DNA of 64,000 bases from Acidobacteriota bacterium (GCA_016196065.1 JACPYL010000010.1:372001-436000), one strand, 5' to 3'; numbered from the stretch's first letter, positions 14,251-62,919 are shown. The notes: a model not told the origin generated them from the letters alone. Translations and numbers: made by a program.

Positions 14251-14258
14251 GGGATTAG

Positions 14259-14326: not shown

Positions 14327-14332
14327 CTGTTT

Positions 14333-15699: not shown

Positions 15700-15709
15700 C
15701 GGTTGAAGT

Positions 15710-17165: not shown

Positions 17166-17190
17166 AGAACATGAGCGCCGCGGGTTCCTA

Positions 17191-17271: not shown

Positions 17272-17306
17272 GAAGGGTTTGACTCTCCGCCATTTAGAAT
17301 GTAGCC

Positions 17307-17861: not shown

Positions 17862-17868
17862 AAAAGCC

Positions 17869-19905: not shown

Positions 19906-19987
19906 TGAGTATGATGATAATCTTCCCGCAAAAGATGTGCAGCGACAAGGGTTAGGTAGAGCCGGAGTCTTGCCGGCGCTTACAGGA

Positions 19988-21160: not shown

Positions 21161-21211
21161 GGGAGCAATTGTAAAGGAGGGCGGAAACGGAAAGGGACTT
21201 AGCCGGCAAAG

Positions 21212-21287
21212 TGGTGACCCCGGAGAGATTCGAACTCCCAACCAATTGGTTCGAAGCCAATTGCTCTATCCATTGAGCTACGGGGCC
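21212..21287 (-). tRNA. tRNA-Arg (anticodon TCG)
   Basis: 76 nt including an encoded 3' CCA. Acceptor GGCCCCG pairs with CGGGGTC (one G-U). The D arm has GCTC/GAGC. The anticodon stem ATTGG/CCAAT holds the loop CTTCGAA with anticodon TCG, and the T arm is GGGAG-TTCGAAT-CTCTC. It lies between the ABC transporter and lpxB on the same strand. Confidence 0.95.
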
Positions 21288-21331
21288 ATCTCATAAAACT
21301 TTACCATTACAGCGCGGTTTGGGACACGGAC

Positions 21332-23278: not shown

Positions 23279-23356
23279 CGGGCAGTGAAGGAACTAAGTA
23301 AAAGATTACCTTAAATAGATGGCGGGAAGGGCGATTCGGATGGAAAAGCTTGCTGG

Positions 23357-45192: not shown

Positions 45193-45722
45193 CGGCTTTT
45201 CTTTCAAGATTGTAAGCGCTGCCAGCCGCATATCGATGACTTCATTTGAAGTCTGGCCCGCGGAGTCGTATGCCCACCACCCAGGGCATGGCGCCTGGGG
45301 CGTAGTCACAGCTCCTGTGTTTCCAGACGATTGCCCCCATCTTTACAGACAGATGCAGGTGAATTTATGAAAAATCGGCAAGGCAAGTCTGTGCAAAAGT
45401 GCTCATAAATTTATGTCGCTTGGGACGGAATCGTTGAAACCACATGAACTTTCCAGTACCGACGACGTCCCGTTCCTGGGTTCCTACTTCTCTCCAGCAA
45501 TCAAACGGCGGTCCCGATGGGGCTCGGTCCTGGGCAGACCGGTACTCAGTTCGCATTTTTCCCCCGGTTTAGCACCACAAGTAGGGCAGCGAACCGTCAG
45601 GACCTTCTTTTCCGTGACTTTCATAGCTACATCATGCAACGCAATGTACTTCCATGTTGGTCAAAAGTGACCAGTATCTTCCGTAATGAGTCACGATCGT
45701 GGATTTCGGCATCTAACTCGAA
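45193..45722. other. 530-bp gene-poor stretch with a 9-bp inverted repeat
   Basis: No gene is supported here; short frames on both strands lack start signals and family resemblance. The Crp-type gene's promoter must lie in the left part. AATTTATGA (45362-45370) and TCATAAATT (45404-45412) are inverted 9-mers 33 bp apart, the only clear structure seen. They may be a regulatory site. Confidence 0.4.
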
Positions 45723-47385: not shown

Positions 47386-50300
47386 AAGCGGTATTTGAAT
47401 GCAAACTGCAGAACGCGTGGCCCATTCAGGGCGTTGATTCTCTGCAGACTCCCAAATCCGTTTACGCCGCTGTTTTGCACCAGATAGCAAATCTGATTTG
47501 AACTCAAACCGTCTCCGCACGTATCCCCGAACGGACTGTACTGAATCTGATTGACTCCGTTTCCATTCTGCACATAGTAGTTGGCATGGTTGAAAAGATT
47601 GAACGCCTGCACTTGAACAGCAACGCTCTGCCGCTCATTGATGTGGAATTGCTTGCCGAGGCTAAGGTCGATTTGCTGCGTCCAGGGTCCGTAGAACGAG
47701 TTCAATCCTGCCCGCGGACTTGGCCCCGCGCCGTTTATCCCGAGCGCTGAATTCGCGGTACTTTGTAAGGCAGCTGAGTCGTTCACGATATTGCGAGTTG
47801 CTCCATCCGCGAGATCGCATTCAGGACCGATTTCATCCGAAGGGCAGGCCGTATCGAGTAGGGCTGCGTAAGGGCGCCCCGAAGCGAACTGCATCAATGT
47901 ACTGATCGTCCAGTTAGATACGAGACCACGAAGCCTCGGAGAATGCAGATTCTGCCCAAACCCCGGTTCATAGACCGCAGCGATTGAGAGCCGATGGCGC
48001 TGGTCGAGTAGATAGGGGGCGTGGGTATTGCGCAAGTCAAACTGGTTGTTGAAATCCACGCCGCGGGCCATGATGTTTTTTGCATACGTATACGAGGCGT
48101 GGAACGAGAGCCCTCGCCGCATCCGCCTCTGCGCCTGCGCGAAAAATGAGTTGTAATGATTGATCCCGGGACTGACCAGCGCATTGATCTGATTGAAGCT
48201 TGAGCTGATTCGCCCCTCTTGCAGCAAGCCGGAATCGAGATTTGGAAGAACGACTTGTTTCCCGTTGCAGTCTTCAGTGTCCGCGGCCTCCGGGGGGCAG
48301 AGCACAAATGTGGTCGCGCCGGTCGGTGGAATCAGATTCAGATCGTAGGCACTGGACGCAATCAAATGCACGCCATGTGTCCACGTTGTTCCCACGGTAA
48401 GCACTGTGTCAGGAAATATCTCGCGTTCGATTTGAAGGCTGGACTGCAGGATCGAGGGGAATCGAAAATGCGGATCGATCAGGGAAATATCTGCCGCTGA
48501 GAATAGCGATGGATCGGTCACCTGGTTCGGGAAAACTGCGACTTGATCCTGGGGCGTGAGGTCCCCATTGTAAGCAAGATTCACCGAAGCCTGTTGGGAG
48601 AGCAATCCATTCGACACCACGGAATTGCGGTAGTTTAGGCCGTTCAGGTTTTCGTAGAACATGCCAAAGCCGCCGCGGACCACGGTCTTTTCCATCGGTT
48701 GCCATGCCAATCCGATGCGCGGAGCGAGTCGCTGGTACTGGTTCGGAAATTGTCCCGTCAGTGGGAAATCGGGGTTGCCCCGCGGTTGCGGATAGATCTG
48801 AAAGTCCTCCCGCAGGCCTAGATCAAGCGTCAGGCCACGGCGAATCTGGTAGGTGTCAGCAATATAGAAACCGAGGTACGGCACCGCGAAAGAGAATTTC
48901 GGATTGCCGGCGCTCTGCACGAAATTGTCGTAACGTCCAATCGCAAAATCCGGCAGACTCGAGAATGTATAGGTTCCACGGAATGTTCCATTTTGACGGG
49001 CGGCGTCTGGATCGAATCCGCCAAACGCAAGGTCCGCCACGTGCCCGTAGCTGAACTCCACTCCGAATCGAAAGGTGTGCCTGCCTTGCAAGTAGCTGAC
49101 GCGGTCGGAAGTTTGCCACAAGGCCTCATTCGTGCGACCTCCGGCGAATCCGGCATTGCCAAGTTGCAACGCTCCGCCCTGATCGGCATCGCCGCCTGAA
49201 GTGAGAAGAATCGCGGGAAGGACCGGATTCACCAGGCCAGTGGGCGTGAAGTACTGATCGTCACGCGAAAAACTGGCATGAAACTCATTCAGGAGATTAC
49301 TCCCGTAGGCATGGCTCCAGCCGAGAGCAGCGTGGTAGTCGCGAACAAATGCATTGGCCAGCGTGCTGATCCCGAATAGCGGTGTTTGATTGCCCACGAT
49401 AGCGCCGCCCGGCGAGTCAAAGCGATTCCAATTCAGGCTGAGATAAATGCGATCGTCCTTCGAGTCCCGGTAGTCGATCTTCGTGAGGAGTGCCCAGTCA
49501 TTGCGAAAGCGAGGATGAATGCCAAGATTGGAGTGAATTGCCTGGAGTGCGTTCGCGACTCCCTGCAAATATCGCGGGTCCTCCGGGTCGGGATTGTTCG
49601 TATCGCCAGGGGAAGGAAACTGGCCGTTCGCAGGCGGCAGCTGGATTCCGTCCTCAACGCCGAAGTCTTCCTGCGAAACATCCGCGAAAGCGGGGTTAAT
49701 CACCGACATTGGATTCTTCTGCCGCTGTTGTTCGTAGTCCGTGAAAAACCAGGCGCGGCCCGGCATCACCGGCCCACCCAGGCTGCCCCCGAACTGTTGA
49801 AGAATATTTGCGGGCCTCGGGATGCCATTGGCTTTGTTGACGGCATCGTTCGCGCCGGCCCCAGAATTCCGGTTGTAGTAAAAGGCGTTGCCATGCAGAG
49901 TGTCTGAGGCCGAGCGGGTGACTACGTTGACGAATCCCGTTGCAGCGCCGCCGTAGTCCGAGCGATAGGGCGAAACGGCAACCTGGAATTCCTCGATCGC
50001 GTTTTCTCCAAAGATGTAAGGGACGCGCTCGCCGCCGCGTGCCGCTCCAAAATAGTTGCTGCCGGCGCTAGCGCCGTCGACCGAAAATGCATTGGAGCCG
50101 TTGGCGTTCGCGTAGCCAGTGTCCTGCCCGCCTTGCTCCCCTGCAAGGCTGACCAATCCCTGTTCGCCGTCCGGTGTGGCGTTCGGTACCAATAGCGCGA
50201 GATCAAGGAAGCGGCGTCCGCTGAGCGGCAAATTATTGAGGGCGCTGCGATCGATTACCGAACTCAGGTTCGAGTTTTCGGTCTGCAACAGCGGAGACTC

Positions 50301-50690
50301 GCCCGTCACCGTCACCGATTCGCTCTCTGAACCCGGTTGCAGGCGAGTGGTCACCGTGACTGTCTGTCCTACCTGCACCACTACCGCCTTAACAATTTCC
50401 TTCCGGAAGCCGCGAGCAGTTACCTCAAGCGCGTACAGTCCAACCGGCTGAGACGGAAACAAAAAAATACCTGCCGAGTTCGATATACATTTCTGGCTTC
50501 CACTGGAGGATTGGAAAGCGAGAACGACAGAAGCACCTGCGATCGTCGCTCCCGTGTTGTCTGCAACCACGCCACGGACCGCACCCGTCGGCGCTGCGGC
50601 CTGGGCCCATAGGGGTTTGCAACAGGTCGCGAGCGCAATCCACAACACCACACTGGGAACTTTCAATCGATATCCCGTCGACCGGTTCAT
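47382..50690 (-). CDS. TonB-dependent receptor (Oar-like) with N-terminal CarboxypepD_reg-like domain
   Basis: 1102 residues from ATG 50690 (AAGGA upstream; the 20 upstream codons are outside the signal peptide). Signal peptide to about residue 30 (LATCCKPLWAQ). A carboxypeptidase-regulatory-like domain follows (GAVRGVVADNTGATIAGASV, about 36-115). The plug has LSGRRFLDLALLVPNAT and NAIEEFQVAVSPYRSDYGGAATGFVNVVTR. A large barrel ends in VLQFAFKYRF with the C-terminal Phe needed for insertion. This Oar-like class is expanded in Acidobacteria and thought to import large polymers or peptides. No substrate genes adjoin. Confidence 0.93.
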   Translation of the reverse strand: MNRSTGYRLKVPSVVLWIALATCCKPLWAQAAAPTGAVRGVVADNTGATIAGASVVLAFQSSSGSQKCISNSAGIFLFPSQPVGLYALEVTARGFRKEIVKAVVVQVGQTVTVTTRLQPGSESESVTVTGESPLLQTENSNLSSVIDRSALNNLPLSGRRFLDLALLVPNATPDGEQGLVSLAGEQGGQDTGYANANGSNAFSVDGASAGSNYFGAARGGERVPYIFGENAIEEFQVAVSPYRSDYGGAATGFVNVVTRSASDTLHGNAFYYNRNSGAGANDAVNKANGIPRPANILQQFGGSLGGPVMPGRAWFFTDYEQQRQKNPMSVINPAFADVSQEDFGVEDGIQLPPANGQFPSPGDTNNPDPEDPRYLQGVANALQAIHSNLGIHPRFRNDWALLTKIDYRDSKDDRIYLSLNWNRFDSPGGAIVGNQTPLFGISTLANAFVRDYHAALGWSHAYGSNLLNEFHASFSRDDQYFTPTGLVNPVLPAILLTSGGDADQGGALQLGNAGFAGGRTNEALWQTSDRVSYLQGRHTFRFGVEFSYGHVADLAFGGFDPDAARQNGTFRGTYTFSSLPDFAIGRYDNFVQSAGNPKFSFAVPYLGFYIADTYQIRRGLTLDLGLREDFQIYPQPRGNPDFPLTGQFPNQYQRLAPRIGLAWQPMEKTVVRGGFGMFYENLNGLNYRNSVVSNGLLSQQASVNLAYNGDLTPQDQVAVFPNQVTDPSLFSAADISLIDPHFRFPSILQSSLQIEREIFPDTVLTVGTTWTHGVHLIASSAYDLNLIPPTGATTFVLCPPEAADTEDCNGKQVVLPNLDSGLLQEGRISSSFNQINALVSPGINHYNSFFAQAQRRMRRGLSFHASYTYAKNIMARGVDFNNQFDLRNTHAPYLLDQRHRLSIAAVYEPGFGQNLHSPRLRGLVSNWTISTLMQFASGRPYAALLDTACPSDEIGPECDLADGATRNIVNDSAALQSTANSALGINGAGPSPRAGLNSFYGPWTQQIDLSLGKQFHINERQSVAVQVQAFNLFNHANYYVQNGNGVNQIQYSPFGDTCGDGLSSNQICYLVQNSGVNGFGSLQRINALNGPRVLQFAFKYRF

Positions 50691-50827
50691 GCATTTCCTT
50701 CGATGGGGGGCACCCGTCGCGCGATATGGTATGTGATCTGTTGCATTCAAGTCAGGGAACGCGGGATCACTGCGAGGGGTAATTCTCGCCCAGCAACACG
50801 GGACACAGCAAGTGGTGGGATCGAGCC

Positions 50828-52195
50828 TTAGGAAGGAACGCCTTGCTCCTGCAGAGCCAGCTTGGCTTCTTTGCTGGCTTCCTGTGTCTGATCACGCATG
50901 CCGAAACGAATACCGATCTTCTTCAGGAAGTCATAAGGCGGCACTCCACCGGCAAAGATCCAAACGAAGTCGTTCGGCAATTCACGTTTTTCGCCTTGCA
51001 CGTCGAGCAACACGGAATCAACTTTGAACTCGACTGGGTTCGTATTGAAAAGGACTTCGACCTTTCCGGACCGCATGCAGTCGGCGATTCGTTTTGAATT
51101 GCGCTCCTTGATGCGGCTGAACTGCGCGCTCCGGTAACAGAGCGTGACCTTGTTGCCGGATTGGTTCGCGAGTCCCATCGCGGCTTCCACAGCGCTGTCT
51201 CCGCCGCCGACGATGAGAATTTTCTTGTTCACATAGTGATCCGCCTCAATCAGCCGATACATGACCTTGCCCTGTTCCTCGCCCTGAACTCCTAGTTTGC
51301 GCGGAGTGCCGGTCTTACCCAGGGCAAGAATGACGGCTCGGGTGCGGTATTCATTGGTGGCCGTTTTGACCGTGAATATCGCGTCTTCACCCTTGTTGAT
51401 CTGTTCGACCTTTGCGCCCGTCACGCAGTTGAAGTCCGCGCGGTTGAGAACCATATCCCAGAACGCAAGCAGGTTTTCCTTGGACAGTTCGGTCTTCTTG
51501 AACTTACCGTACATCGGAAATTCCACGGGACTGGTCATCACCAGCTTTTGTCGAGGATACTTCGCAACGGTGCCGCCAATTTCATCCTGTTCGAGGGTGA
51601 TGTAGTTCAGCTTGTTTTCGATGGCGCGTAGCGATGCGCTGATTCCGGCCGGTCCTGCACCCACGATCAGCACATCATAAACACCCGTCTGCGCCGTTCC
51701 ACCGCGAGAGGCACGTCGGCGCACGAGGTGGTCAACGCATTCGCGGCCCTGATTGACCGCATTCTTGATCAGTGCCAGGCCGCCGAGTTCGCCGATGAGA
51801 AACAGATTCTCAATGCTGGTCTCGAATTCCGGGGTCATGTAGGGCATGTCGGCCCCCATGCTCGGAGTGGCCATGACCATCGTGATCGCACCGACTGGAC
51901 ACGCCTCCGCGCACAAGCTGTGGCCAATGCACTTATATCCATTGACGATCACGGCCTTGCCCGCCAGCATGGCGAGTACGTCGCCTTCCGGGCATACGGT
52001 CGTGCACGTCGCGCAGCCAATACAGTTGTTGGTATCAATATGCGGATGCTGCGAGCGCGGGCCTTCGGAGAAAACTTTCCCTTTCTCAGCCGCTTGTTTG
52101 GCGAGTTCGTCCCGCTGCTTCAAGCTTTTCAGATAGCCACGGAGGAAGAATAGAGACACTGCGACCGCGATCGCGATGGTGATCAGAGACTCCAT
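50828..52195 (-). CDS. Membrane-anchored 4Fe-4S/FAD/NAD(P) oxidoreductase
   Basis: 455 residues. One N-terminal helix (about 3-20) anchors it. Two ferredoxin-type motifs follow: C58-C61-C64-C68-P, and a second with C89-x-x-H92-x-x-C95-x-x-x-C99-P where His replaces the second Cys. The rest is a thioredoxin-reductase-like flavoprotein with FAD motif GAGPAG at 179-184 and a second dinucleotide motif VGGGDSAVEAA. The CxxC disulfide of true thioredoxin reductase is absent. It probably takes electrons from NAD(P)H and passes them to the membrane protein encoded 9 bp upstream. Last gene of the cytochrome cluster. Confidence 0.88.
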   Translation of the reverse strand: MESLITIAIAVAVSLFFLRGYLKSLKQRDELAKQAAEKGKVFSEGPRSQHPHIDTNNCIGCATCTTVCPEGDVLAMLAGKAVIVNGYKCIGHSLCAEACPVGAITMVMATPSMGADMPYMTPEFETSIENLFLIGELGGLALIKNAVNQGRECVDHLVRRRASRGGTAQTGVYDVLIVGAGPAGISASLRAIENKLNYITLEQDEIGGTVAKYPRQKLVMTSPVEFPMYGKFKKTELSKENLLAFWDMVLNRADFNCVTGAKVEQINKGEDAIFTVKTATNEYRTRAVILALGKTGTPRKLGVQGEEQGKVMYRLIEADHYVNKKILIVGGGDSAVEAAMGLANQSGNKVTLCYRSAQFSRIKERNSKRIADCMRSGKVEVLFNTNPVEFKVDSVLLDVQGEKRELPNDFVWIFAGGVPPYDFLKKIGIRFGMRDQTQEASKEAKLALQEQGVPS

Positions 52196-52204
52196 ACATC
52201 GATC

Positions 52205-53158
52205 CTAGAAAAAGCCCATCATCAACACCACGCCAATGTGAACCAGCACCAAGACTGCAAACGTGTAGCTGAATGGTTTGTGTACGACATGCCACAGGTG
52301 AAAGACCTGCTGCGTTCGCGAAAGGAACAGGATGCGTTTGGAAAGAGCCGCTTCTTCCTTCGCGATGGCGATGGCCCGTTCCAATTCGCGGTTCTTTGTG
52401 ACCAGCAGTCCGCCCAGAGTCGTCAGGTACTCCGAGCCATGCAGAGATCCGCTGCGCAAGCGCGCAATCCGCAACGGCCGCAGCAGGTCGAGTAAGAACA
52501 TATAGACCAGTGCGACAGCGGCGGGTAAACGATCCACCGTTTCCTGGCTGGGAAGGCGCAGTGCAGAACGCACATCCGACTCCCGCAAGACTTTTTGCTC
52601 GGCGAGTTGGTCCGCCATCTTTGCTTGGATATCCTGCAGCTCCTTGCGCGAAAATTCCGCTGCGTTGACTCGCCGCGGAATCTGTCCGTAGAGGTATCGG
52701 CCCACGATTCCGCTTGTGGAAACAGCGACCATGATCCAGAACGCGATCCCCGCAAAACCATGGAACTTGAACGACGAGTGCATGGCGATGACAAACGGCG
52801 CCGACAAGCCGAGCACGATGTGGAAATCCAGCCAATGCCGGGAAACGCCGATTCGGCCCAGCCATGTCCAACGCTTTCGCAGCGGGTAGAGAAAGATGAT
52901 CAGGAACATGCCCACGCCCAGCATGCCGAGCTTGATGCCGATCCGTCCGCTCGGCTTGAGCAGCGCGTGTTTCGCCATGAAGGGGCGATCGTGGGGACCG
53001 GCAGTGTAATAGTCGAAGCCATAGGCGCCCAGCCCTACGATCAATGCGATGGCGACTAGGTAGGCAAGGAACAGGCGTAGTTTATGGCCTGCCTCAGGAT
53101 TGCTGGCGGCGGCCGCAACTGCGACGGGAATTGGACTTGGGGCAGTGGCTGTGCTCAT
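52205..53158 (-). CDS. Histidine-rich membrane protein, putative cytochrome b
   Basis: 317 residues from ATG 53158, which overlaps the upstream stop by 4 nt (ATGA); the longer frame to 53422 is ignored. Five to six helices: about 28-48, 72-92, 112-130, 136-158, 212-228, 296-314. Histidines cluster at helix ends (H108, H113, H127, H133 in the first half; H287, H290, H293, H307 in the last helix region), a pattern suiting two b-type haems. A cytosolic coiled region lies at about 165-205. No close family is recognised; a quinone- or ferric-reductase-like cytochrome b is the best guess. Confidence 0.7.
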   Translation of the reverse strand: MSTATAPSPIPVAVAAAASNPEAGHKLRLFLAYLVAIALIVGLGAYGFDYYTAGPHDRPFMAKHALLKPSGRIGIKLGMLGVGMFLIIFLYPLRKRWTWLGRIGVSRHWLDFHIVLGLSAPFVIAMHSSFKFHGFAGIAFWIMVAVSTSGIVGRYLYGQIPRRVNAAEFSRKELQDIQAKMADQLAEQKVLRESDVRSALRLPSQETVDRLPAAVALVYMFLLDLLRPLRIARLRSGSLHGSEYLTTLGGLLVTKNRELERAIAIAKEEAALSKRILFLSRTQQVFHLWHVVHKPFSYTFAVLVLVHIGVVLMMGFF

Positions 53159-53970
53159 TTTTGGGCGACGTGCTCCTCGGTGGATACCGCAAACTGCTTG
53201 TACGTCGTGAACCGGTGCGTGTTTCTCCAGTGCTGCTTCGGCGTTTCTACTTCCACGACCGCTTCGGTGGGAAACCAGTACACCGGTTGCGTCTTGTCGG
53301 TGCTGAAGGGCACCGCAGCAAAATGGACCGACGACTGCAAGGTTTTCATCCCGATATCTTCCAGTGTGGACCCAACGCCGGCATCCACGCGCAGGATGTC
53401 CCCTTTTTGGGGATCGACCCATGCCGTGCCCGATAGTTCCAGCGGATATTCACGCCCTCGCAGAGCGAGAGCCGCCACGGATCGCGTGTTGGGAATGTGC
53501 TGGAAATGAATTTTGCGAGTGGCATGGCCGTCAAGCGTTTCACTGCCCGCATCGCTGAATTCAAAACCATTCATGTAGTAGGGATGGAATACCAGGAACA
53601 GGGTCGCAAAGCCGTTGCTGAGCAACATCGAAATCGGCATACGGCTGTTGACCTTGGATTCCTTGATGGGAAGTCGTGACTCGTTGAGCGTCAGGTCTCC
53701 GCCAGTGTTGGTCAGAATGACGAGGTAGTCGTACGAGGACTGCCGTTCGATGTCTACCTTGCCGTCCAGTCTAAACTTCTCTTGCGTGACCTGCTCCGTG
53801 CACTTGACGTTCGAAAACTGGTCGAGAAATTCCGTCGTGCGATGCGACGTCCGGTCGAGAATTTGCTCGAACGAATCTGTCTGTGCTCCGGTCAGCGGGC
53901 AGACACACAACAGCAGAGCGGATATGCCGAGAAAAACCCGAGTTGAGACGAACCTGCGCATCCTGATCAC
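53155..53970 (-). CDS. Secreted hypothetical protein of the cytochrome cluster
   Basis: 271 residues. Signal peptide to about residue 29 (LLLCVCPLTGAQ). The mature part starts helical (FEQILDRTSHRTTEFLDQFSNVKCTEQV), then is beta-rich, with AWVDPQKGDILRVDAGVG resembling the strand hairpin of LolA-type proteins. No CxxCH. Both ends overlap neighbours by 4 nt, so it is translated in fixed ratio with the outer-membrane barrel and the cytochrome b candidate. It may be an assembly chaperone for the barrel. Confidence 0.78.
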   Translation of the reverse strand: MIRMRRFVSTRVFLGISALLLCVCPLTGAQTDSFEQILDRTSHRTTEFLDQFSNVKCTEQVTQEKFRLDGKVDIERQSSYDYLVILTNTGGDLTLNESRLPIKESKVNSRMPISMLLSNGFATLFLVFHPYYMNGFEFSDAGSETLDGHATRKIHFQHIPNTRSVAALALRGREYPLELSGTAWVDPQKGDILRVDAGVGSTLEDIGMKTLQSSVHFAAVPFSTDKTQPVYWFPTEAVVEVETPKQHWRNTHRFTTYKQFAVSTEEHVAQK

Positions 53971-56801
53971 CGGTGTCCGTGACGGTTATCAAAGCGGTAG
54001 CCAAACGTGAAGATCCACTGATCGTAGTTCATCTGGTTCCCGCGGTTGATGGTGCCGCCGCCCTGCACAAAATAGTGTTCGCCGAGCGCGCTCTCCATCA
54101 TGATGTTGACGAAACGAGAGCGGTTCGCCGCGCTGAGCGTGGACGCAAAGTTTTGCTGTCCGGCAAGAATCTGGAGTTGCAGGGTTTCGCCGAGATTCTT
54201 GGAGAGCGACAGCGCTTCATACGAGCCGCTGCCAAAACTGCTGTTGAATCGCGAGTAGCGCGCGTCCGCGTGCATGTTGACCCATGGAATCCGGCCAAAG
54301 GTGATGCCGAACATTTCGTTCAACGAATTTTTCTTGTCGCCGGTCCGGTTGCTAAGCCCCAAGTCAGCGCTGAGCCAGACCTGCTTGTAGATTTCGACAC
54401 GGGTGCCCGCGCTGAACCCTTGCATCAGATATTTGTCGAGCAATCCGGTCTGAATCAGGCTGGGATCGAAACTCGGCAAGTCGCGAAAATACGTGTGATT
54501 GAAGCTCAACTCGACTTTGGGATGAACCTGCGCGCGCATCGTCAGGAAACTCCTCCCGAGGCCAAAGCCTGTACCGGGTTGATGTCCTGTTGTTCCGTCG
54601 GCATTTTTGTAGTCGTACCCTGGCTGCGAATCCAACTGTGACGATTGATAAATCGAAAAGATGCGTTTGTAGAAGATGCTGTTTTCCGCAAACAGGAACG
54701 GACGGTTCGGACTCCAACTCAGCAACTTCATGCCAGCGCCGGTGGTCGACGTGTAGTGCAGGTCTTCGTAACTTCCGCCTTCGAAGTTGACGAACGAACC
54801 GCCGATTTCGCGGTTCGGCGCGTAACTATACGAAGTCGGATCGGGAGTCGAGCCAAGAAAAACACCGGCCGTAACTCCTTGCTTGAGCCGGCGCCCGAAA
54901 TATCCGCCGTCAATCGTATCCAGGCTGGTTGCCCACGGAAGATACATACGGCCAAAGCCCGCCACCCACGCGGAGTTTGGATTGTCGTACGTTGTATACA
55001 GGTGATAGGTTCGGTTCAGCAGATCCTGCAGCGTCTGCGTACCCGCAGTGGTGTGATTCAAGCGCCCACGCCAATATCCACTCACGTTCCAATAGGTTCC
55101 GTTAAGGCGCGTGATATCGGCGCGCAGGACTACGCCCAGGTTGGAACTCTGCATCCCGGAGCCGTCGTGGTTCAAGACGCCAATGTAGTCGAAGCCAATA
55201 CGGCCACGAGCACGATTCACAGACGGCAACGGCGGCTTCGGAACTTCAGCGCGCGCTTCGTCGTCCAGCGTATCGTTCTCAGTAAAACTGATGACAGCGG
55301 GATATTTTCGGGTGGCGCTCAGGGCATTTTTTTCGACCAGCGATTGCTGATCGGCAGACGACAGGTAGGCGAGATCGCCAATTTTCACAGAGCGCTTCGG
55401 CGTGTGAATTTCGGTGACGGAAGAAGTTTCAGCGACGGACAAAACCACAAGTTCGGCTACATCACCGGCGGCTTCTGGATCGGATCCTTCACTTGCCACA
55501 GCGCCCGAGTGAGGCAGGTCGCGCACCACCAACTTCATCCCTTCCGTAAGGCCAGCCGCTCGTCCGCCATCCAGGTAAGCGGCGTCCTGCGCGACGTACT
55601 TCACTCGAAATGCAGTCCGCAGATCAGAATTCTCTCCCGCGCGAGCAGGCATCTGGAGCTGCCCCTGGCCCGAGCCCTGGGCCTCTTCGCTGCTGTCTGC
55701 GGAAGTAGTGTCGGTTGCAGGCTGCGAATCCTTGGCAGCGTGTTGCGCGGTTGCTTGCGGCTGTTCCTTGGTAACCGGTTCAGAAGTTGTTCGGGCGCTG
55801 GGCTCCTGTGCTTTCGCAATCTTCGAATCGGAATTCTTGGCAGGCGTCTGCTCCACTGCCTGCACCGGTGGCGGCGGCGCGACTGCGGCCTCTTGAACCG
55901 GTGCTGGTAGAACTGGGGGCGGCGCAGGGGGCGTGATTGTTCCTTGCAGAACCGATGCGGTTGTTTCTGGTTGCGTTTTGCGAGCAGCCGCCAATGCTTC
56001 TCGAAGAGCCTGATCGCTAGCCGGCGCAGGTTGCTCGCTTACGGAAGCTTGCGTCCCGGCGGCGCTCGTGTCCAAGCCGCTGGGCCGGGGCAGTCCGGAA
56101 ACCGGTGGTACTTCTCCTGTGCCCGGGGATCCGGCGGTCGGAAACACCGTTCCTTGTTGCAGGCTGCCAGTCTTCGGATGTTGGGCCGTTGGCGGTCCGG
56201 TGGAGGCGGTGGTCGAATTGGCGGAAGAATCGGGTGTCCCGCGCGGAAATTGAATCGGCGGACCAGATGGCGGAGGCGTGAGTAGAACGCCATCCTCGTT
56301 GCTCTGGTTGCCGTACTCCCCGCCGGACTTCGATCCTCGTCCGAGTGTACTAATGAGTGGACGCGACGCGGCAGCAGCCGGCCCGGTCCGCTTGCGCGCG
56401 GACATACTCGGTGGAGCTTCTACCACCAGGATGATTTTCTTACCATCCGTCAGAATTTTGTACGAGTGTTCTGAGTCCAGATCGACAACCAGATGAGTCT
56501 CGGGCGGAGTGGTCTGGTTCAATCCAAAACGGACAACCCGCACACCCAGTTGTCCGACCGCGATTCTCTTTTGCTGCGTTTCGGAAAGTGTGCCGGGGAG
56601 TTTGAGGACCAACCGATCAGGATGTTGCGCAACTGCTACGGACGGGGTAACTACAGCGCTCAGAGTCACTTCAACGCGAATCTCGCCATTGACGGGAACG
56701 ATCTCAACCTTGCGCACTGCGGCCGGACCAAGTTCGTTGGTCTGTGCCGACAACATGGCCCCCAGGATCAGGAGCAATCCCAGATAAATCAACCGCTTCA
56801 T
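53967..56801 (-). CDS. Outer-membrane beta-barrel with N-terminal AMIN domain
   Basis: 944 residues. Signal peptide 1-19. AMIN domain about 27-130 (VRKVEIVPVNGEIRVEVTLS, DRLVLKLPGTLSE, GVRVVRFGLNQTTPPETHLVVDL), a fold that docks proteins to peptidoglycan or secretins. A long Pro/Ala/Gln-rich linker spans about 135-390. A small domain is at about 395-480. From about 530 to the end there are amphipathic beta strands ending in QWIFTFGYRFDNRHGHR, with aromatic girdles typical of an outer-membrane barrel of about 18-22 strands. No CxxCH. Located between the giant cytochrome genes and the inner-membrane genes, it is the natural candidate for the outer-membrane conduit. Confidence 0.8.
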   Translation of the reverse strand: MKRLIYLGLLLILGAMLSAQTNELGPAAVRKVEIVPVNGEIRVEVTLSAVVTPSVAVAQHPDRLVLKLPGTLSETQQKRIAVGQLGVRVVRFGLNQTTPPETHLVVDLDSEHSYKILTDGKKIILVVEAPPSMSARKRTGPAAAASRPLISTLGRGSKSGGEYGNQSNEDGVLLTPPPSGPPIQFPRGTPDSSANSTTASTGPPTAQHPKTGSLQQGTVFPTAGSPGTGEVPPVSGLPRPSGLDTSAAGTQASVSEQPAPASDQALREALAAARKTQPETTASVLQGTITPPAPPPVLPAPVQEAAVAPPPPVQAVEQTPAKNSDSKIAKAQEPSARTTSEPVTKEQPQATAQHAAKDSQPATDTTSADSSEEAQGSGQGQLQMPARAGENSDLRTAFRVKYVAQDAAYLDGGRAAGLTEGMKLVVRDLPHSGAVASEGSDPEAAGDVAELVVLSVAETSSVTEIHTPKRSVKIGDLAYLSSADQQSLVEKNALSATRKYPAVISFTENDTLDDEARAEVPKPPLPSVNRARGRIGFDYIGVLNHDGSGMQSSNLGVVLRADITRLNGTYWNVSGYWRGRLNHTTAGTQTLQDLLNRTYHLYTTYDNPNSAWVAGFGRMYLPWATSLDTIDGGYFGRRLKQGVTAGVFLGSTPDPTSYSYAPNREIGGSFVNFEGGSYEDLHYTSTTGAGMKLLSWSPNRPFLFAENSIFYKRIFSIYQSSQLDSQPGYDYKNADGTTGHQPGTGFGLGRSFLTMRAQVHPKVELSFNHTYFRDLPSFDPSLIQTGLLDKYLMQGFSAGTRVEIYKQVWLSADLGLSNRTGDKKNSLNEMFGITFGRIPWVNMHADARYSRFNSSFGSGSYEALSLSKNLGETLQLQILAGQQNFASTLSAANRSRFVNIMMESALGEHYFVQGGGTINRGNQMNYDQWIFTFGYRFDNRHGHR

Positions 56802-56875
56802 TCGCCCTCATACTTCCTGCTGTAATCGGATGACCCTCAGGTCTCACTATCAGTTCAAAGCACGTTGGATTCCGT

Positions 56876-59800
56876 TTAGCCCCCGCCACCGTTCTTGTGG
56901 CACTGGTAGCAGTTCGCGCTGTTGTAGACATAGTTGCGAACGCCCTGATGCTTCGGGTCGGTCTGGGACTTGGTGTGGCAGCTTGTGCAAGTGAAGACCG
57001 AGAAGTCGTTCGGATTCGTATGGCAGTTGGAGCAGATGCCATTCGCGTTCCCGTGGTTGAGCGGAAAATACGTGTGATTGAACTTGCCGTTACTCCACTT
57101 GACTGTGTCATGACAGGTGGCGCAGGTGGTCGGGAAATGAGCGGCCGTATGGTTCGGATTATTCGTATTGAGGTAATCCGTCTTATGGCAGCCGTAGCAA
57201 TCCGTCGGCAGCATCGTGTAGTTGCCGTTGACGTGGCAGTCCACGCAGACTCGCGGCGGCACCAGGTGCGAGCCGGTCAGCGGGAAGGCCGTCTTGCTGT
57301 GATCAAACACTGCGTCGGTCCACTTGATGGTGTCGTGGCAGACTTCGCACGTCTGCGGGAATTTCGCCGCCACGTGATCCGGATCTTTGGCACCGTTGAA
57401 GTCCGCGAGGTGGCACGTCACGCACGCCGTGTTGTTCAACTTGTAGTTGTTGTTGACGTGGCAATCCGAGCACGCTCGCGGAGGCACCGTATGCGAGCCA
57501 GTCAGTGCCCAACCCGTGGCCGCGTGATCGAATTTGCCGTCCGTCCAGTTGACGGTGTCATGGCAGGTTTCGCACGTCGTCGGGAAGTTCGCCGTGATGT
57601 GATCGACCGGCGTCTTGGCGTTGTTGTAGTCCGTCTGGTGACACGAAACGCAAGTCGTCACCGTGATGTTGTAGTTGCCGTTGACATGGCAATCCACGCA
57701 CGCGCGCGGCGGAACGGTATGCGAGCCTGTCAGTGTCCAGCCAGTTTGCGCGTGATCGAACTTGCCATCCAGCCAGTTGACGGTGTCATGGCAGGTTTCG
57801 CAGGTGAGCGGGAACTTCGCGCCCACGTGATCGACCGGCGTCTTGGCGTTGTTGTAGTCCGTCTGGTGGCACGAGACGCAACTGGTCTGCGTCAGGTTGT
57901 AGTTGCCGTTGATGTGGCAATCGGTACAAGCGCGCGGCGGAACGGTGTGCGAGCCCGTTAATGCCCAACCGGTTTGGGCGTGATCGAACTTACCGTCCAT
58001 CCAGTTGATGTTGTCGTGGCAGGTTTCGCAAGTGAGCGGGAACTTCGCGCCCACGTGATCGACCGGCGTCTTGGCGTTGTTGTAGTCCGTCTGGTGGCAC
58101 GAGACGCAACTGGTTTGCGTCAGGTTGTAGTTGCCGTTGATGTGGCAATCGGTGCAAGCGCGGGGTGGCACGGTATGCGAACCCGTCAACGCCCACCCAG
58201 TCTGCGCGTGATTAAACTTGCCGTTCATCCAGTTCACGGTGTCATGGCAGGTTTCGCACGTCGTCGGGAACTTGGCCTTAATGTGGTCGACTGGCGTCTT
58301 GGCGTTGTTGTAATCGGTCTGGTGGCACGTTACGCAAGACGTCTGGGTCAGGTTGTAGTTGCCATTGATGTGGCAGTCGGCGCACTGCCGGGGCGGCACG
58401 GTGTGCGAGCCCGTCAACGCCCAGCCGGTGGCGGCGTGATCGAACTTGCCATTCATCCAGTTCACTGTGTCGTGGCAACTCTCGCAGGTCGTGGGGAACT
58501 TCGCCGTAACGTGATCGACCGGAGTCTTGGCATTGTTGTAGTCGGTTTGGTGACACGAGACGCAACTCGTATTTGTGATGTTGTAGTTGCCGTTGACGTG
58601 GCAATCAGTACAAGCGCGCGGCGGGACAGTGTGCGATCCAGTTAATGCCCAGCCTGTGCCCGCGTGATCGAATTTTCCGTTCGTCCACTGCACCGTGTCA
58701 TGGCAGTTGGCGCATGTGGTCGGGAACTTCGCACCCACGTGATCAACCGGCGTCTTCGCGTTGTTGTAATCCGTCTGGTGGCACGATACGCACTTTGTAT
58801 CCGTGATGTTGTAGTTGTTGTTGGTGTGGCAATCTTCGCATTGTCGCGGAGGCACCGTGTGCGATCCGGTGAGCGGGAATCCTGACTTCGCGTGATCGAA
58901 CTGGGCCGGCTGCCACGCGGTGGTGGTGTGGCAGACTTCGCAAGTCTTGGAGAATCCCTGCTGCGTGTGATTCGGGTTATTCGTGTTGTTGTAATCCGTA
59001 AGGTGACACGTCACGCAGGTCGTCTGCGTCAGATTGTAGTTGCCGTTGACATGGCAGTCCGAGCACGCTCGGGGCGGCACCGTATGCTGGCCAGTGAGCG
59101 CCCATCCGGTCGAGGCATGATCGAATTTGCCATTTGTCCAGGCGACGGTGTCATGGCAACTCGCGCACGTCGTGGGGAAATTGGCACCGATGTGATCGAC
59201 CGGCGTCTTCGCGTTGTTGAAGTCGTTCTGATGGCACGAGACGCAACTCGCCGTCGTGATGTTGTAGTTGTTGTTGACGTGGCAGTCCGTGCAAGCCCGC
59301 GGTGGAACGGTATGCGAGCCCGTTAACGCCCATCCCGTCGAAGCGTGATCGAACTTGCCATTCGTCCATGCCACCGTATCGTGACAACTCGCGCACGCCG
59401 TGGGCAAGTTCGCCCCCAGGTGATCGACTGGCGTCTTCGCGTTGTTGTAATCCGTCTGGTGGCAGGAAACGCAATCCGTATTCGTAATGTTGTAGTTGTT
59501 GTTGACGTGGCAATCCGCGCACTGGCGAGGCGGAACCGCGTGCGCATTGTTCAGCGGGAAGCCAGTCTTCGAGTGATCAAAACTCGCCGGCTGCCAGGCA
59601 GATGTCGAGTGGCAGCTGTCGCAAGTCTGCGGAAAACCGCCCTGCACGTGATTCGGATTCGTGCTGTTCTGGAAGTCCTTCAGGTGGCAGCCCACGCAGG
59701 CGGTCTGCGGCAAACTGTAATTGTTGTTGACGTGACAGTCTGTGCAGGCCCGCGGCGGAGACATGTGTGCCCCCGTCAGCGGGAATCCCGATTTCGCGTG

Positions 59801-60676
59801 ATCGAAGTTCGCCGGTGTCCAGGCTACGGTCGTGTGGCACGATTCGCAGGTTTGCGAGAAACCCTGCTGCGCGTGGTTCGGATTCTTGGTGTTCTGAAAA
59901 TCCTTGAGATGGCAGCCCACACAGGTGGTCTGGGGCATCTGGTAATTATTGTTGGCATGGCAATCCGCGCAGGCCCGCGGCGGAACCATGTGCGCGCCGG
60001 TCAGAGGAAAGCCAGTGAGCGCGTGATCGAACTTCGCGTTTAACCAGTTGTCGGAAGAGTGGCAGGATTCGCAAGTCGTCGAAAACTTACCCGCCACGTG
60101 GTCAGGATTCTTCGCCCCTTGAAATTCCTTCTGGTGACAGCTGTAGCACGCTGTCGACATCGTGCTGTAATTGCTGAGCGCGCCATTCTTGTGGCAGTCA
60201 TCGCAGGTTGCCGCCGCGTGTGCACCGGTCAGCGGGAAACGATTCATGTGCTGGTTGATCTGCTGGACCGCGACCTTCCAGCCACGAACCGTGTGGCACG
60301 ATTCGCATTTCGCGCCCATCTGGCGCTTATGAATATCCGCGTGACAGTCGGCGCACTTGTTGCCGACGTTGCTGAACACCATCTTGGTATGGCACGCCGT
60401 GCAAGGCACACCCTCATGCAGGCCGCGCAGCGGGTAACGTGTCTGATTGTGATCGAATTCAGGAACCGCCCGGATCGGCTTCCATCCGTAGACCGTGTGG
60501 CAGTTCTGGCAGGACAGATTCAGATTTCCGTGCGGGCTCCGCGAGCTTTGCGGATTCTGCGGCGCGCCCGGTGCGGGCGACGGCAGCAGCAAAAGCAGCG
60601 AAACTACCAGACTCGCAAATAGTCTCGAAATCAAAATGAGCCAAGCCTCAACTAGTGTGTGATCCACTACAAGCAA
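56876..60676 (-). CDS. 49-haem c-type cytochrome of tandem three-haem modules
   Basis: 1266 residues with a TTG start at 60676; TTG 60634 is an alternative that still leaves the signal peptide (SLLLLLPSPAPGA). I count 49 CxxCH motifs. Seven lie in the N-terminal part. Then 13 tandem modules of 75-76 residues follow, each with three CxxCH in the order x-DCH, CVxCH, CExCH. The last three are in the C-terminal part. Each module also has three conserved lone His (NPNH/PVDH, KFDHA, GSHTVPPR), enough for bis-His ligation of all three haems. Secreted; probably a filament or wire-like electron carrier outside the inner membrane. No catalytic domain is visible. Confidence 0.93.
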   Translation of the reverse strand: MLVVDHTLVEAWLILISRLFASLVVSLLLLLPSPAPGAPQNPQSSRSPHGNLNLSCQNCHTVYGWKPIRAVPEFDHNQTRYPLRGLHEGVPCTACHTKMVFSNVGNKCADCHADIHKRQMGAKCESCHTVRGWKVAVQQINQHMNRFPLTGAHAAATCDDCHKNGALSNYSTMSTACYSCHQKEFQGAKNPDHVAGKFSTTCESCHSSDNWLNAKFDHALTGFPLTGAHMVPPRACADCHANNNYQMPQTTCVGCHLKDFQNTKNPNHAQQGFSQTCESCHTTVAWTPANFDHAKSGFPLTGAHMSPPRACTDCHVNNNYSLPQTACVGCHLKDFQNSTNPNHVQGGFPQTCDSCHSTSAWQPASFDHSKTGFPLNNAHAVPPRQCADCHVNNNYNITNTDCVSCHQTDYNNAKTPVDHLGANLPTACASCHDTVAWTNGKFDHASTGWALTGSHTVPPRACTDCHVNNNYNITTASCVSCHQNDFNNAKTPVDHIGANFPTTCASCHDTVAWTNGKFDHASTGWALTGQHTVPPRACSDCHVNGNYNLTQTTCVTCHLTDYNNTNNPNHTQQGFSKTCEVCHTTTAWQPAQFDHAKSGFPLTGSHTVPPRQCEDCHTNNNYNITDTKCVSCHQTDYNNAKTPVDHVGAKFPTTCANCHDTVQWTNGKFDHAGTGWALTGSHTVPPRACTDCHVNGNYNITNTSCVSCHQTDYNNAKTPVDHVTAKFPTTCESCHDTVNWMNGKFDHAATGWALTGSHTVPPRQCADCHINGNYNLTQTSCVTCHQTDYNNAKTPVDHIKAKFPTTCETCHDTVNWMNGKFNHAQTGWALTGSHTVPPRACTDCHINGNYNLTQTSCVSCHQTDYNNAKTPVDHVGAKFPLTCETCHDNINWMDGKFDHAQTGWALTGSHTVPPRACTDCHINGNYNLTQTSCVSCHQTDYNNAKTPVDHVGAKFPLTCETCHDTVNWLDGKFDHAQTGWTLTGSHTVPPRACVDCHVNGNYNITVTTCVSCHQTDYNNAKTPVDHITANFPTTCETCHDTVNWTDGKFDHAATGWALTGSHTVPPRACSDCHVNNNYKLNNTACVTCHLADFNGAKDPDHVAAKFPQTCEVCHDTIKWTDAVFDHSKTAFPLTGSHLVPPRVCVDCHVNGNYTMLPTDCYGCHKTDYLNTNNPNHTAAHFPTTCATCHDTVKWSNGKFNHTYFPLNHGNANGICSNCHTNPNDFSVFTCTSCHTKSQTDPKHQGVRNYVYNSANCYQCHKNGGGG
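57060..59990 (-). repeat. Tandem coding repeat, about 228 bp per unit, 13 units
   Basis: The unit of 225-228 bp encodes one three-haem module. Units between about 57,580 and 58,650 are nearly identical at DNA level: 57806-57930 matches 58034-58158 with only a few changes at an exact 228-bp offset. Outer units (59,000-59,990) are more diverged. This points to recent unit duplication or conversion in the centre of the array. Confidence 0.9.
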
Positions 60677-60927
60677 TCACGTGTCCAACAACACTACTGC
60701 GTATACCCAGTTGGGCTGTAGTTACGGTAGTGAATGTTCGTGGGTACAGTAGGCATGTTGTTCAGAAATCTGTACTTATTGCTACTCCGAGGCGCAAAAC
60801 TAGGCTGAGTAGTTTCTGCTCGCGACCTTGGAAAAATTACGGTTCAGAAATCTGGCACTTGAAGTGCGTTATCTGGACAATTCGTCCCGATTTCAGGTGT
60901 TTTGGATGAGGTCGAAAAGGGCGCTGT
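60677..60927. promoter_or_regulatory. Gap between the two cytochrome genes with a repeated palindromic word
   Basis: 251 bp without a gene. TTCAGAAATCTG occurs at 60761-60772 and 60843-60854, 82 bp apart; CAGA-AA-TCTG inside it is an inverted repeat. A degenerate copy (GTTCAGAGATTGCG) lies at about 63121 before the amidohydrolase gene. The gap probably contains a promoter for the 49-haem gene, and the two words are candidate operators. Confidence 0.4.
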
Positions 60928-62919
60928 TCAGGACTTTTGCTGGAACTTGGGGTCCGCTCCATGGCAATCCTTGCAGTCTTTGGGAGTCGGTTTGTAGTAG
61001 AGGACTTGCTTCCCTTCAAAGTCCTTCATCAGTTTGTGGCAGTCGCCGCAACGGACGCTCTTGTGCGCGCCTGCGAGCGCGAACTGGGTACGCTTGTCGT
61101 GGTCGAAAGTCGAGGGTTTCCACTTCGCGCTGTTGTGACAATCGGCGCACGGAGTGACCTCACCTTTGGCGAATTGCCGGCCGTGCGGATCGGCATGACA
61201 CTCCTCGCACTTCAGCGGAGCCTCGGTGAAATTCGCGTCGATCAGCTTGGTGCTCAGGTTCGCCGGCTTGTGGCAATCGATGCACGTCACCGCGCGATGC
61301 GCCCCGACCAACGCAAACTTGGTCTTGGCATGGTCGAAGCGGGTCAGATCCTTCCAGTCTTTCGTGGAGTGGCAGGCCTCGCACCCGGCTCGCGTTCCAT
61401 CGCCACGTAGCGCTTTCATCCGTTCCGCAAACTGGTTGTTGTGCGGGTCCTTGTGGCACGTCACGCAGGAACCATCCTGGAAATGAAATACGGCGGTCGT
61501 GCCGTACCGGGGAGGCTCAGGTGCAGGTGTTGTCTGTACCGCTGCAGAAGCGGGCAGGAGCGCCGCACTCGGGAATGCCGACGCCGGTTTGTGGCAATCG
61601 CTGCACAGCACTGCCAGATGGCCGTTGGTTAGCTGGAAGCGAGTCTGCTTGTGTTTCGCCAGCGAGAACGAAGACGGCTTGAATCCTTCCACTGAATGGC
61701 ACTGCTCGCACTGGTTCAACCAGGGAGCCGCCGCAAACTGTGTCTGATGTTCGTCGTGATGGCATTCCAGGCACTTCTCGAACTTGATCTTGTATAGAGT
61801 GTCTTTCCCCTTGGCAATGTGACACTGCGCGCAATCCAGTTTCGCGTGCTTGCCGGCCAGCGGATATTGAGTGGAAGCATGCGCCTTCACGTCGAACTTT
61901 GAAGGCTTCCATCCAGTGACCTCGTGGCAGGCAGAGCACTCGCCTGCATCGGGACGCTTCGCGAACTGCCCATTGTGCGCGTCTTTGTGGCAGTCCGTGC
62001 ACTTCGCGAATTGGAGTGGCTTCTTGAAGTCGCCGTTCGCGTGGCAGGAACCGCATGGCACGGTCAGATGTTTCCCAACCAGCGGATACTTCGTCTTGGA
62101 GTGATCGAAGCTCTGGTTGAGTCCGGTGGTGACGACCTTCTTCCAGCTTGCCGTCGTGTGGCAGCTCTGGCAACTCTGCTGTCCGAAGCTGCCCTTATGC
62201 GGATCGGCATGGCAGTCATTACACTTCGAGAAGGGAAGTCCCATGTAGCGCGGTTGCTTGTCCGGCCCCGGCGTATGGCACTTTTCGCACTTCACCTGCG
62301 CGTGCTGTCCGGTTAACGGGTAGCGGGTCTTCGCGTGATCGAACGTTCCCGAAACATTTTTCCAGTCCGTGAAATTGTGACAGGTCGCGCAATTCGGTCC
62401 CAGCCGTCCGCTATGAGGGTCTTTGTGGCAAGTGGCACAAGTCTCTGCTAACCCTACGAAACTGCGGTTGAGGTCCTTGATCTTAATCAACGCACGTTCT
62501 GCGGGAAGAATATGTTCCGGCGTGTGGCACTTCTTGCATTCCACGCCTGCATGCTTGCCTTCCAGCGTGTACCCGGTCTGCTTATGATCGAAAGTCTTTG
62601 TGTCCCACTTGACGAGCGGGAAGTCCAGTCCGTTGTGGTCGGAGTGGCACTTCGTGCACTCCTGGCTTGATCCCGGCCGCATCCCGTACGAGAAGTGCAA
62701 CCCCTTGTGCGCGTTGAGCCGGGCCGCAATTTCACCGTGACACTCCAGGCATTTGAAAACGACTTCTCCGCCCAGTTTGTGGCAAGTTGTACAGCGCGTG
62801 GCGCCCTCGAGATCCTTATGTGCGCGCGCGAGTGCGCCCGGAGAAATCTGTCCTGCCGCCGCAGTCGATAGAACCGCGATCGCGAAAATCAGGAAATACT
62901 TGCGCAAGCGCCAAGCCAT
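60928..62919 (-). CDS. 23-haem c-type cytochrome
   Basis: 663 residues from ATG 62919 (MAWRLRKYFLIFAIAVLSTAAAGQ signal peptide; a TTG at 63012 gives an implausible N-terminus). I count 23 CxxCH motifs over about 600 residues. Motifs are spaced irregularly, often in pairs with the recurring phrase FDHxKTxYxLxGxH between them, which supplies distal His ligands. It is related in style to the 49-haem protein but has no exact tandem units. Likely periplasmic or surface electron carrier. First gene of the cluster, 251 bp upstream of the 49-haem gene. Confidence 0.92.
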   Translation of the reverse strand: MAWRLRKYFLIFAIAVLSTAAAGQISPGALARAHKDLEGATRCTTCHKLGGEVVFKCLECHGEIAARLNAHKGLHFSYGMRPGSSQECTKCHSDHNGLDFPLVKWDTKTFDHKQTGYTLEGKHAGVECKKCHTPEHILPAERALIKIKDLNRSFVGLAETCATCHKDPHSGRLGPNCATCHNFTDWKNVSGTFDHAKTRYPLTGQHAQVKCEKCHTPGPDKQPRYMGLPFSKCNDCHADPHKGSFGQQSCQSCHTTASWKKVVTTGLNQSFDHSKTKYPLVGKHLTVPCGSCHANGDFKKPLQFAKCTDCHKDAHNGQFAKRPDAGECSACHEVTGWKPSKFDVKAHASTQYPLAGKHAKLDCAQCHIAKGKDTLYKIKFEKCLECHHDEHQTQFAAAPWLNQCEQCHSVEGFKPSSFSLAKHKQTRFQLTNGHLAVLCSDCHKPASAFPSAALLPASAAVQTTPAPEPPRYGTTAVFHFQDGSCVTCHKDPHNNQFAERMKALRGDGTRAGCEACHSTKDWKDLTRFDHAKTKFALVGAHRAVTCIDCHKPANLSTKLIDANFTEAPLKCEECHADPHGRQFAKGEVTPCADCHNSAKWKPSTFDHDKRTQFALAGAHKSVRCGDCHKLMKDFEGKQVLYYKPTPKDCKDCHGADPKFQQKS

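What the first reader, a model, noticed from the sequence alone, without database searches (positions are those of the whole stretch)
50828..62919. Candidate trans-envelope electron-transfer system: 72 haems, an AMIN-barrel, a cytochrome b candidate and an Fe-S flavoprotein in one cluster
Six same-strand genes encode a 23-haem and a 49-haem cytochrome c, an outer-membrane barrel, a secreted protein, a His-rich membrane protein and a membrane-anchored NAD(P)H-type oxidoreductase. The last four overlap by 4 nt (ATGA) or lie 9 bp apart, so they are made together. Seen in sequence: CxxCH counts, overlaps, membrane segments, barrel-like C-terminus. Known: porin-cytochrome conduits (MtrCAB, Pcc) pair a barrel with multihaem proteins. 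Inference: electrons flow NAD(P)H to flavoprotein, cytochrome b, 23-haem, 49-haem, outside. None of the parts is an evident homologue of Mtr or Pcc proteins, and the AMIN domain on the barrel is unusual.
Basis: partly seen in the sequence, partly recalled or inferred. Interest (0 to 1): 0.88.

Follow-up and report, generated by a model that had tools for sequence, protein, structure and literature searches.

The report
NAD(P)H-linked trans-envelope electron wire
A conserved set of soil-bacterium genes appears to build a wire of up to 70-odd haems that carries electrons between NAD(P)H inside the cell and the outside world, with one cytochrome of fixed length and another whose length varies by adding or removing three-haem units.

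Summary
Six co-directional genes (62919 to 50828, minus strand) encode a 23-haem and a 49-haem cytochrome c, an outer-membrane barrel with an AMIN domain, a LolA-fold periplasmic protein, a five-helix di-haem cytochrome b and a membrane-anchored 2[4Fe-4S]/FAD/NAD(P) flavoprotein. The set is conserved across Terriglobia, recurs with shuffled gene order in other Acidobacteriota, and five of the six genes occur on a Bacteroidota plasmid (Emticicia, 23 + 40 haems).

The first cytochrome has exactly 23 haems in 40 of 44 loci. The second ranges from 19 to 61, almost always 3n+1, independent of relatedness: fixed caps around a varying number of 76-residue tri-haem repeats.

It is not Mtr or a Geobacter Pcc. 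It matches PCC3 (He et al. 2017), a predicted conduit described from Proteobacteria: the cytochrome b carries both WX3HX13H motifs and the TM4 SGXXG motif of the PCC3 inner-membrane protein. It differs in its co-conserved NAD(P)H-type flavoprotein, LolA-fold protein, smaller 22-strand barrel and strictly 23-haem partner. Direct homology to PCC3 could not be tested.

Best reading: a PCC3-type conduit whose inner end is NAD(P)(H)-linked. Direction of flow is inferred, not shown. New variant of a known kind.

The parts
60928..62919 (-). 23-haem cytochrome c (663 aa, signal peptide, 23 CxxCH, 46 Cys); inferred periplasm-spanning carrier
   Evidence: ORF and counts; Pfam Cytochrome_C7 and Cytochrom_c3_2; exactly 23 haems in 40 of 44 loci; 36% identity end to end to the Emticicia 23-haem protein
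56876..60676 (-). 49-haem cytochrome c (1266 aa, TTG start, 49 CxxCH, 98 Cys): fixed N- and C-caps around about 76-residue tri-haem repeats; inferred extracellular wire
   Evidence: N-cap (34%) and C-cap (41%) conserved in the Emticicia 40-haem protein
53967..56801 (-). Outer-membrane beta-barrel protein: signal peptide, AMIN domain (residues 32-120), Pro/Ala-rich linker, beta-rich domain, C-terminal 22-strand barrel
   Evidence: Pfam AMIN; AF2 model of residues 375-944, pLDDT 75; Foldseek best matches are outer-membrane barrels; orthologues
56442..56708 (-). AMIN domain of the barrel protein (residues 32-120), present in only a subset of orthologues
53155..53970 (-). Secreted LolA-fold protein (271 aa, GTG start), no redox motif
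   Evidence: AF2 pLDDT 91; Foldseek best hits LolA3 / LolA superfamily, E about 1e-6; adjacent orthologues
52205..53158 (-). Di-haem cytochrome b (317 aa, five TM helices): WX3HX13H at residues 109-127 and 289-307, SGXXG at 149-153
   Evidence: weak Ferric_reduct match
50828..52195 (-). Flavoprotein (455 aa): one N-terminal TM helix, 2x[4Fe-4S] domain (residues 50-104), TrxR/YpdA-like FAD-NAD(P) fold (172-434), apparently circularly permuted (FAD-contact segment at about 115-150)

Best explanation
A porin-cytochrome conduit of the PCC3 kind whose inner end is coupled to NAD(P)(H). Proposed path: NAD(P)H is oxidised on the cytoplasmic side by the membrane-anchored flavoprotein; its FAD passes single electrons through two [4Fe-4S] clusters to the cytoplasmic-side haem b of the five-helix cytochrome b (H113/H293) and then to the periplasmic-side haem b (H127/H307); the 23-haem cytochrome, of fixed length, carries them across the periplasm to the 22-strand barrel, through or at which they reach the 3n+1-haem cytochrome that projects outward and delivers them to an extracellular acceptor (Fe(III) minerals, humics or another cell). 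The LolA-fold protein is a non-redox periplasmic helper, possibly for assembly or delivery; the AMIN domain in some lineages probably ties the barrel to peptidoglycan. Shown: gene content, motifs, haem counts, fold classes, conservation. Inferred: localisations beyond signal peptides, contacts between the parts, direction, electron acceptor.
For: Conserved six-gene order in nearly all complete Terriglobia loci found. The same cytb, flavoprotein, 23-haem, 3n+1-haem and barrel set in different order in other Acidobacteriota and on Emticicia plasmid pEMTOL02, so linkage has outlasted rearrangement. Cytb signature identical to the PCC3/PCC4 inner-membrane protein. Flavoprotein lacks the YpdA active Cys (GAGPAG against GGGPCG) and has a 2[4Fe-4S] domain, so its electrons most likely go to Fe-S rather than a disulphide. 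Barrel models as a 22-strand barrel. Low residues per haem (25.8 and 28.8) and enough His for bis-His ligation throughout fit a wire, not an enzyme. Partial loci split into an inner module (23-haem + cytb + flavoprotein: L105, L123) and an outer module (22-haem 3n+1 protein + barrel: L038), which assigns the 23-haem protein to the inner membrane side and the variable one to the barrel.
Against: No experiment. Host isolates named in the hits (Occallatibacter savannae, strain AB60, Emticicia) are not known to me as iron reducers (own knowledge). NAD(P)H to periplasm through a cytochrome b moves charge so as to spend membrane potential, as NOX enzymes do, so it would not conserve energy by itself. 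The barrel model has moderate confidence (pLDDT 75, pTM 0.65). [quoted passage not shown] propose. Flavoprotein distances correlate only weakly with the barrel's (Mantel r 0.24), and two flavoprotein types occur, so this part is exchangeable.
Confidence: 0.62

Rival explanations
1. Electron uptake: the same conduit runs inward, from an extracellular donor (Fe(II), reduced humics, a partner cell) via 3n+1-haem and 23-haem cytochromes and cytochrome b to the flavoprotein, which reduces NAD(P)+.
For: PCC3 was proposed for Fe(II) oxidation, and its inner-membrane component was up-regulated in Fe(II)-oxidising Sideroxydans CL21 (PMC12442390). Bis-His wires are reversible; all parts are shared with the outward reading.
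Against: Reducing NAD(P)+ with typical extracellular donors is uphill. The named host isolates are heterotrophs to my knowledge; no lithoautotrophy genes were tested here.
Confidence: 0.17
2. Quinone-linked PCC3: cytochrome b draws electrons from or feeds them to menaquinone, and the flavoprotein only supplies or regulates a side branch.
For: He et al. 2017 propose this for the PCC3/PCC4 inner-membrane protein by analogy with cytochrome b of bc1 and hydrogenase. The flavoprotein is the least co-evolving part and lies on the opposite strand in a few loci (L083, L101, L103, L111).
Against: A flavoprotein is next to or near cytb in nearly all loci including other classes and Bacteroidota; L105 and L123 keep flavoprotein + cytb + 23-haem when the outer module is gone.
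Confidence: 0.15
3. Not extracellular: a periplasmic electron sink or store (capacitor) for redox balancing, the barrel serving another purpose.
For: Loci without barrel and 3n+1 cytochrome exist (L105, L123).
Against: These are a small minority, and L105 retains an N-cap-like scrap (SPHGSL) at the end of its 23-haem ORF, suggesting loss of an ancestral 3n+1 gene. Barrel present in at least 66 loci; up to 61 haems would not fit lengthwise in a periplasm.
Confidence: 0.06

Closest known systems
PCC3 porin-cytochrome cluster (He et al. 2017, PMC5566968; Gallionellaceae, PMC10734462)
   Same: Porin + two very haem-rich cytochromes + about 300-aa inner-membrane protein with two WX3HX13H motifs and SGXXG on TM4; 22-39 residues per haem; repeat-built cytochromes; variable haem number in the extracellular one; periplasmic one long enough to span the periplasm.
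   Different: Here: Acidobacteriota and Bacteroidota instead of Proteobacteria; a co-conserved Fe-S/NAD(P)H-type flavoprotein and (Terriglobia) a LolA-fold protein, neither listed for PCC3; 23-haem partner essentially invariant (PCC3 periplasmic: 21, 24, 27 in Gallionellaceae); 22-strand barrel (PCC3 porins up to 42 predicted strands); different gene order.
MtrCAB / MtoAB
   Same: Barrel plus multihaem cytochromes as trans-outer-membrane conduit.
   Different: No decahaem MtrA-type protein over its cut-off (49.4 or 64.6 against 192 bits), no MtrB match, no CymA; the inner end is a b-type cytochrome.
Geobacter OmbB-OmaB-OmcB and Ext conduits
   Same: Porin-cytochrome principle.
   Different: No family match in Pfam or NCBIfam for the barrel beyond AMIN; haem numbers and inner partner differ. 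A Burkholderiales cluster with 24- and 49-haem cytochromes and an OmbB-like porin is reported (PMC7399161), a similar-looking case not compared here.
NADPH oxidase / ferric reductase (FRD)
   Same: Di-haem b membrane protein with two HX13H motifs fed by a flavin/NAD(P)H module.
   Different: Flavin module is a separate TrxR/YpdA-like protein with 2[4Fe-4S]; electrons pass to c-haem wires; only a sub-threshold Pfam Ferric_reduct match (14.7 against 28 bits).
YpdA / TrxR-type flavoproteins
   Same: FAD/NAD(P) fold (E about 1e-26 to YpdA).
   Different: Lacks the YpdA Cys, has an Fe-S domain and TM anchor, and is apparently circularly permuted.

Membership tests
PCC3 | Cluster of beta-barrel porin, two multihaem cytochromes and an inner-membrane protein | tested here: met
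PCC3 | Inner-membrane protein about 300 aa with two WX3HX13H motifs and SGXXG between them | tested here: met
   317 aa; motifs at 109-127, 289-307 and 149-153
PCC3 | Very haem-rich cytochromes, 22-39 residues per haem | tested here: met
   25.8 and 28.8 residues per haem
PCC3 | Large porin (up to 42 predicted strands) | tested here: inconclusive
   22 strands in the AF2 model; He et al. used another predictor and give a range
PCC3 | Sequence homology to known PCC3 porin / inner-membrane protein | not testable with these tools
PCC3 | Extracellular / periplasmic location of the two cytochromes | not testable with these tools
   signal-peptide-like N-termini only; partial loci give indirect support
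PCC4 | Three periplasmic cytochromes with 4, 5 and 10 haems, no extracellular one | tested here: not met
   23 and 49 haems; PCC4 content
MtrCAB/MtoAB | Decahaem MtrA/DmsE-family cytochrome with MtrB barrel | tested here: not met
   TIGR03508 below cut-off for both cytochromes; no barrel family match
YpdA bacillithiol disulphide reductase | Score over TIGR04018 cut-off and active-site Cys in GGGPCG | tested here: not met
   159.2 against 339.9 bits; GAGPAG at that place
NOX/ferric reductase (PF01794) | Two HX13H motifs on separate helices | tested here: met
NOX/ferric reductase (PF01794) | Score over the Pfam cut-off | tested here: not met
   14.7 against 28 bits

The most novel reading that the evidence does not exclude
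A distinct, phylum-crossing class of extracellular electron conduit: a NOX-like split NAD(P)H-to-haem-b electron exporter wired directly to an outer-membrane exit, with a fixed 23-haem periplasmic spacer and an outer wire whose length evolves quickly by gain and loss of whole tri-haem units between fixed caps (19 to 61 haems, 3n+1). It would be a natural length series for testing how far a single-chain haem wire needs to reach.
Probability: 0.4. Interest if true: 0.8.

Novelty: new variant of a known kind. Interest (0 to 1): 0.66.

Why it matters
Soil Acidobacteriota are abundant and mostly uncultured, and few electron conduits are described in them. This cluster gives a searchable marker set found at 80 loci in public species-level genomes, ties extracellular electron transfer to NAD(P)H rather than only to quinones, and supplies a natural length series (19 to 61 haems, unit of three) against a constant 23-haem partner, which makes 'why so many haems' testable.

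Tried and rejected
Simple degenerate pattern for adjacent CxxCH in the own genome: no hits, too strict. PDB sequence search of the 23-haem protein: no hit. Papers on 'AMIN domain' + multihaem, and on Acidobacteria + PCC3: none held. CRP/FNR-type sites upstream of the 23-haem gene: none found. Foldseek of the barrel gives only generic barrels (ushers, AlgE, TonB receptors, TM 0.2-0.5), so no family assignment. Idea that haem number tracks phylogeny: rejected, correlation 0.00; cytb 95% identical pair has 49 against 43 haems. Hydrophobic stretch 208-229 of cytb as a sixth TM helix: rejected because it is not hydrophobic in Emticicia (sequence).

Full report
Observation. In order of transcription: 23-haem cytochrome 62919-60928, 49-haem cytochrome 60676-56876, barrel 56801-53967, secreted protein 53970-53155, His-rich membrane protein 53158-52205, flavoprotein 52195-50828. 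Overlaps are GTGA and ATGA, then a 9-bp gap. All 46 and 98 cysteines belong to CxxCH motifs. The 49-haem protein shows a regular 34-16-25/26 residue spacing, i.e. a tri-haem unit of about 76 residues, visible as a 228-bp tandem array at 76% match. It has 100 His and the 23-haem protein 50, so each haem can have two His ligands: a wire rather than a catalytic centre (inference).

Parts. The membrane protein has five hydrophobic helices and two WX3HX13H motifs (109-127, 289-307) plus SGIVG at 149-153, mostly invariant or nearly so among 11 relatives. This is the di-haem b pattern of ferric reductases. The flavoprotein has one N-terminal membrane helix, two [4Fe-4S] motifs and a TrxR/YpdA-like FAD/NAD(P) fold. 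It has Ala where YpdA has its Cys. A segment normally at the C-terminus of that fold (ETSIENLFLIGELGG) lies in front of it; moving it back raised the YpdA score from 96.2 to 106.7 bits as one continuous alignment, which suggests circular permutation. The secreted protein folds as LolA-like (pLDDT 91; top PDB matches LolA3 and LolA superfamily, TM about 0.4). The barrel's C-terminal 415 residues give 22 strands (pLDDT 75) and match outer-membrane barrels generically.

Conservation. A scan of 84,980 species genomes with the cytb profile gave 80 loci (best of 134 candidates), all Acidobacteriota by title. In the loci long enough to judge, the order 23-haem, long cytochrome, barrel, LolA-like, cytb, flavoprotein is nearly universal; in some the flavoprotein is on the opposite strand or a short way off. 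In the phylum, 52 of 396 sampled genomes have a cytb match; in the second tier, other classes, the same parts appear in other orders and without the LolA-like gene. On the plasmid pEMTOL02 of Emticicia oligotrophica (Bacteroidota) the order is CcsA, cytb (31.6% identity), flavoprotein (E 4e-108), 23-haem, 40-haem, barrel (HMM E 3e-20). The 23-haem proteins are 36% identical end to end, and both caps of the long cytochrome are conserved. Carriage is patchy: about 9 of 24 sampled genomes of the window's own genus.

Haem arithmetic. In 44 loci with both cytochromes present on the contig, the first has exactly 23 motifs in 40. The second (CX2-4CH) has 3n+1 in 40 of 44, values mostly 19 to 61. In 40 filtered loci 38 fit 3n+1 (binomial p 2.6e-16 against one third), haem number shows no correlation with cytb divergence (0.00), and a 95%-identical cytb pair differs by two units. 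The arithmetic follows from gain and loss of whole tri-haem units between fixed caps. Caveat: most genomes are MAGs, and repeats can be collapsed in assembly, though units are only about 76% alike in the window.

Modularity and location. L105 (isolate AB60) and L123 keep 23-haem, cytb and flavoprotein without barrel and long cytochrome; L038 has a 22-haem cytochrome of the long type plus barrel alone. This places the 23-haem protein with the inner membrane and the variable one with the barrel (inference). A length that never changes suits a periplasm-spanning part; a length that varies threefold suits an extracellular one.

Mechanism. I favour NAD(P)H, FAD, 2[4Fe-4S], haem b (cytoplasmic side), haem b (periplasmic side), 23-haem, barrel/3n+1-haem, extracellular acceptor. 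The positive-inside rule is consistent with the large cytb loop and the flavoprotein lying in the cytoplasm (charges). Direction is not decided by sequence. Outward flow through cytb would spend membrane potential, so redox balancing or survival under low oxygen is as plausible as growth-supporting respiration (inference).

Comparison. The closest known system is PCC3 (PMC5566968; PMC10734462; PMC12442390), itself predicted and functionally untested. The testable PCC3 features are met except for porin size, which is inconclusive; sequence homology to PCC3 could not be tested. Additions here are the flavoprotein, the LolA-fold protein, the invariant 23-haem partner and the phyla. PMC7399161 reported what it called the first likely PCC in Acidobacteria (Holophaga, MtrB and ExtB/E types); I found no held paper on this cluster.

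Verdict. Real, conserved, more than a chance neighbourhood; best filed as a PCC3-like, NAD(P)(H)-linked variant.

Noticed in passing
window 50828-52195 and orthologues: The flavoprotein looks like a circularly permuted TrxR/YpdA fold fused behind a 2[4Fe-4S] domain; moving residues 109-168 to the end raises the YpdA score by about 10 bits.
   Followed up: partly
L043, L046, L052, L086, L088, L108, L127: A second flavoprotein type (about 42% identical) occupies the same cluster position; two read in full (L043, L046) carry an extra zinc-ribbon-like CxxC...CxxC motif before the Fe-S domain.
   Followed up: no
L046 / L100 (G036): Apparently decaying locus: the barrel ORF is internally shortened to 345 aa and the 23-haem gene is split, while cytb, LolA-like and flavoprotein are intact.
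   Followed up: partly
L105: 6578-8680: The 23-haem ORF of isolate AB60 ends with a scrap resembling the mature N-terminus of the 3n+1 cytochrome (SPHGSL), as if the long cytochrome and barrel had been deleted.
   Followed up: partly
L141 (Emticicia pEMTOL02) 10896-23480: Plasmid-borne copy of the system beside a CcsA cytochrome c biogenesis gene, suggesting the conduit can move with its own maturation factor.
   Followed up: partly
L153 6196-9899 and L154 (own genome): Other multihaem clusters in the same genome: 11- and 7-haem cytochromes, the first fused to a membrane cytochrome b-like domain; and a 10-haem protein next to a distant cytb paralogue.
   Followed up: no
window 47382-50750: Large carboxypeptidase-regulatory / beta-barrel (OMP_b-brl_4) outer-membrane protein directly downstream on the same strand, of the kind common in Acidobacteria.
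   Followed up: no
window 44443-45309: CRP/FNR-type regulator about 5.5 kb downstream of the cluster; no matching site was found upstream of the 23-haem gene.
   Followed up: partly
L038 (G001:C19): A genome with the full cluster elsewhere also carries a stand-alone 22-haem cytochrome plus AMIN-barrel pair without cytb or flavoprotein.
   Followed up: partly
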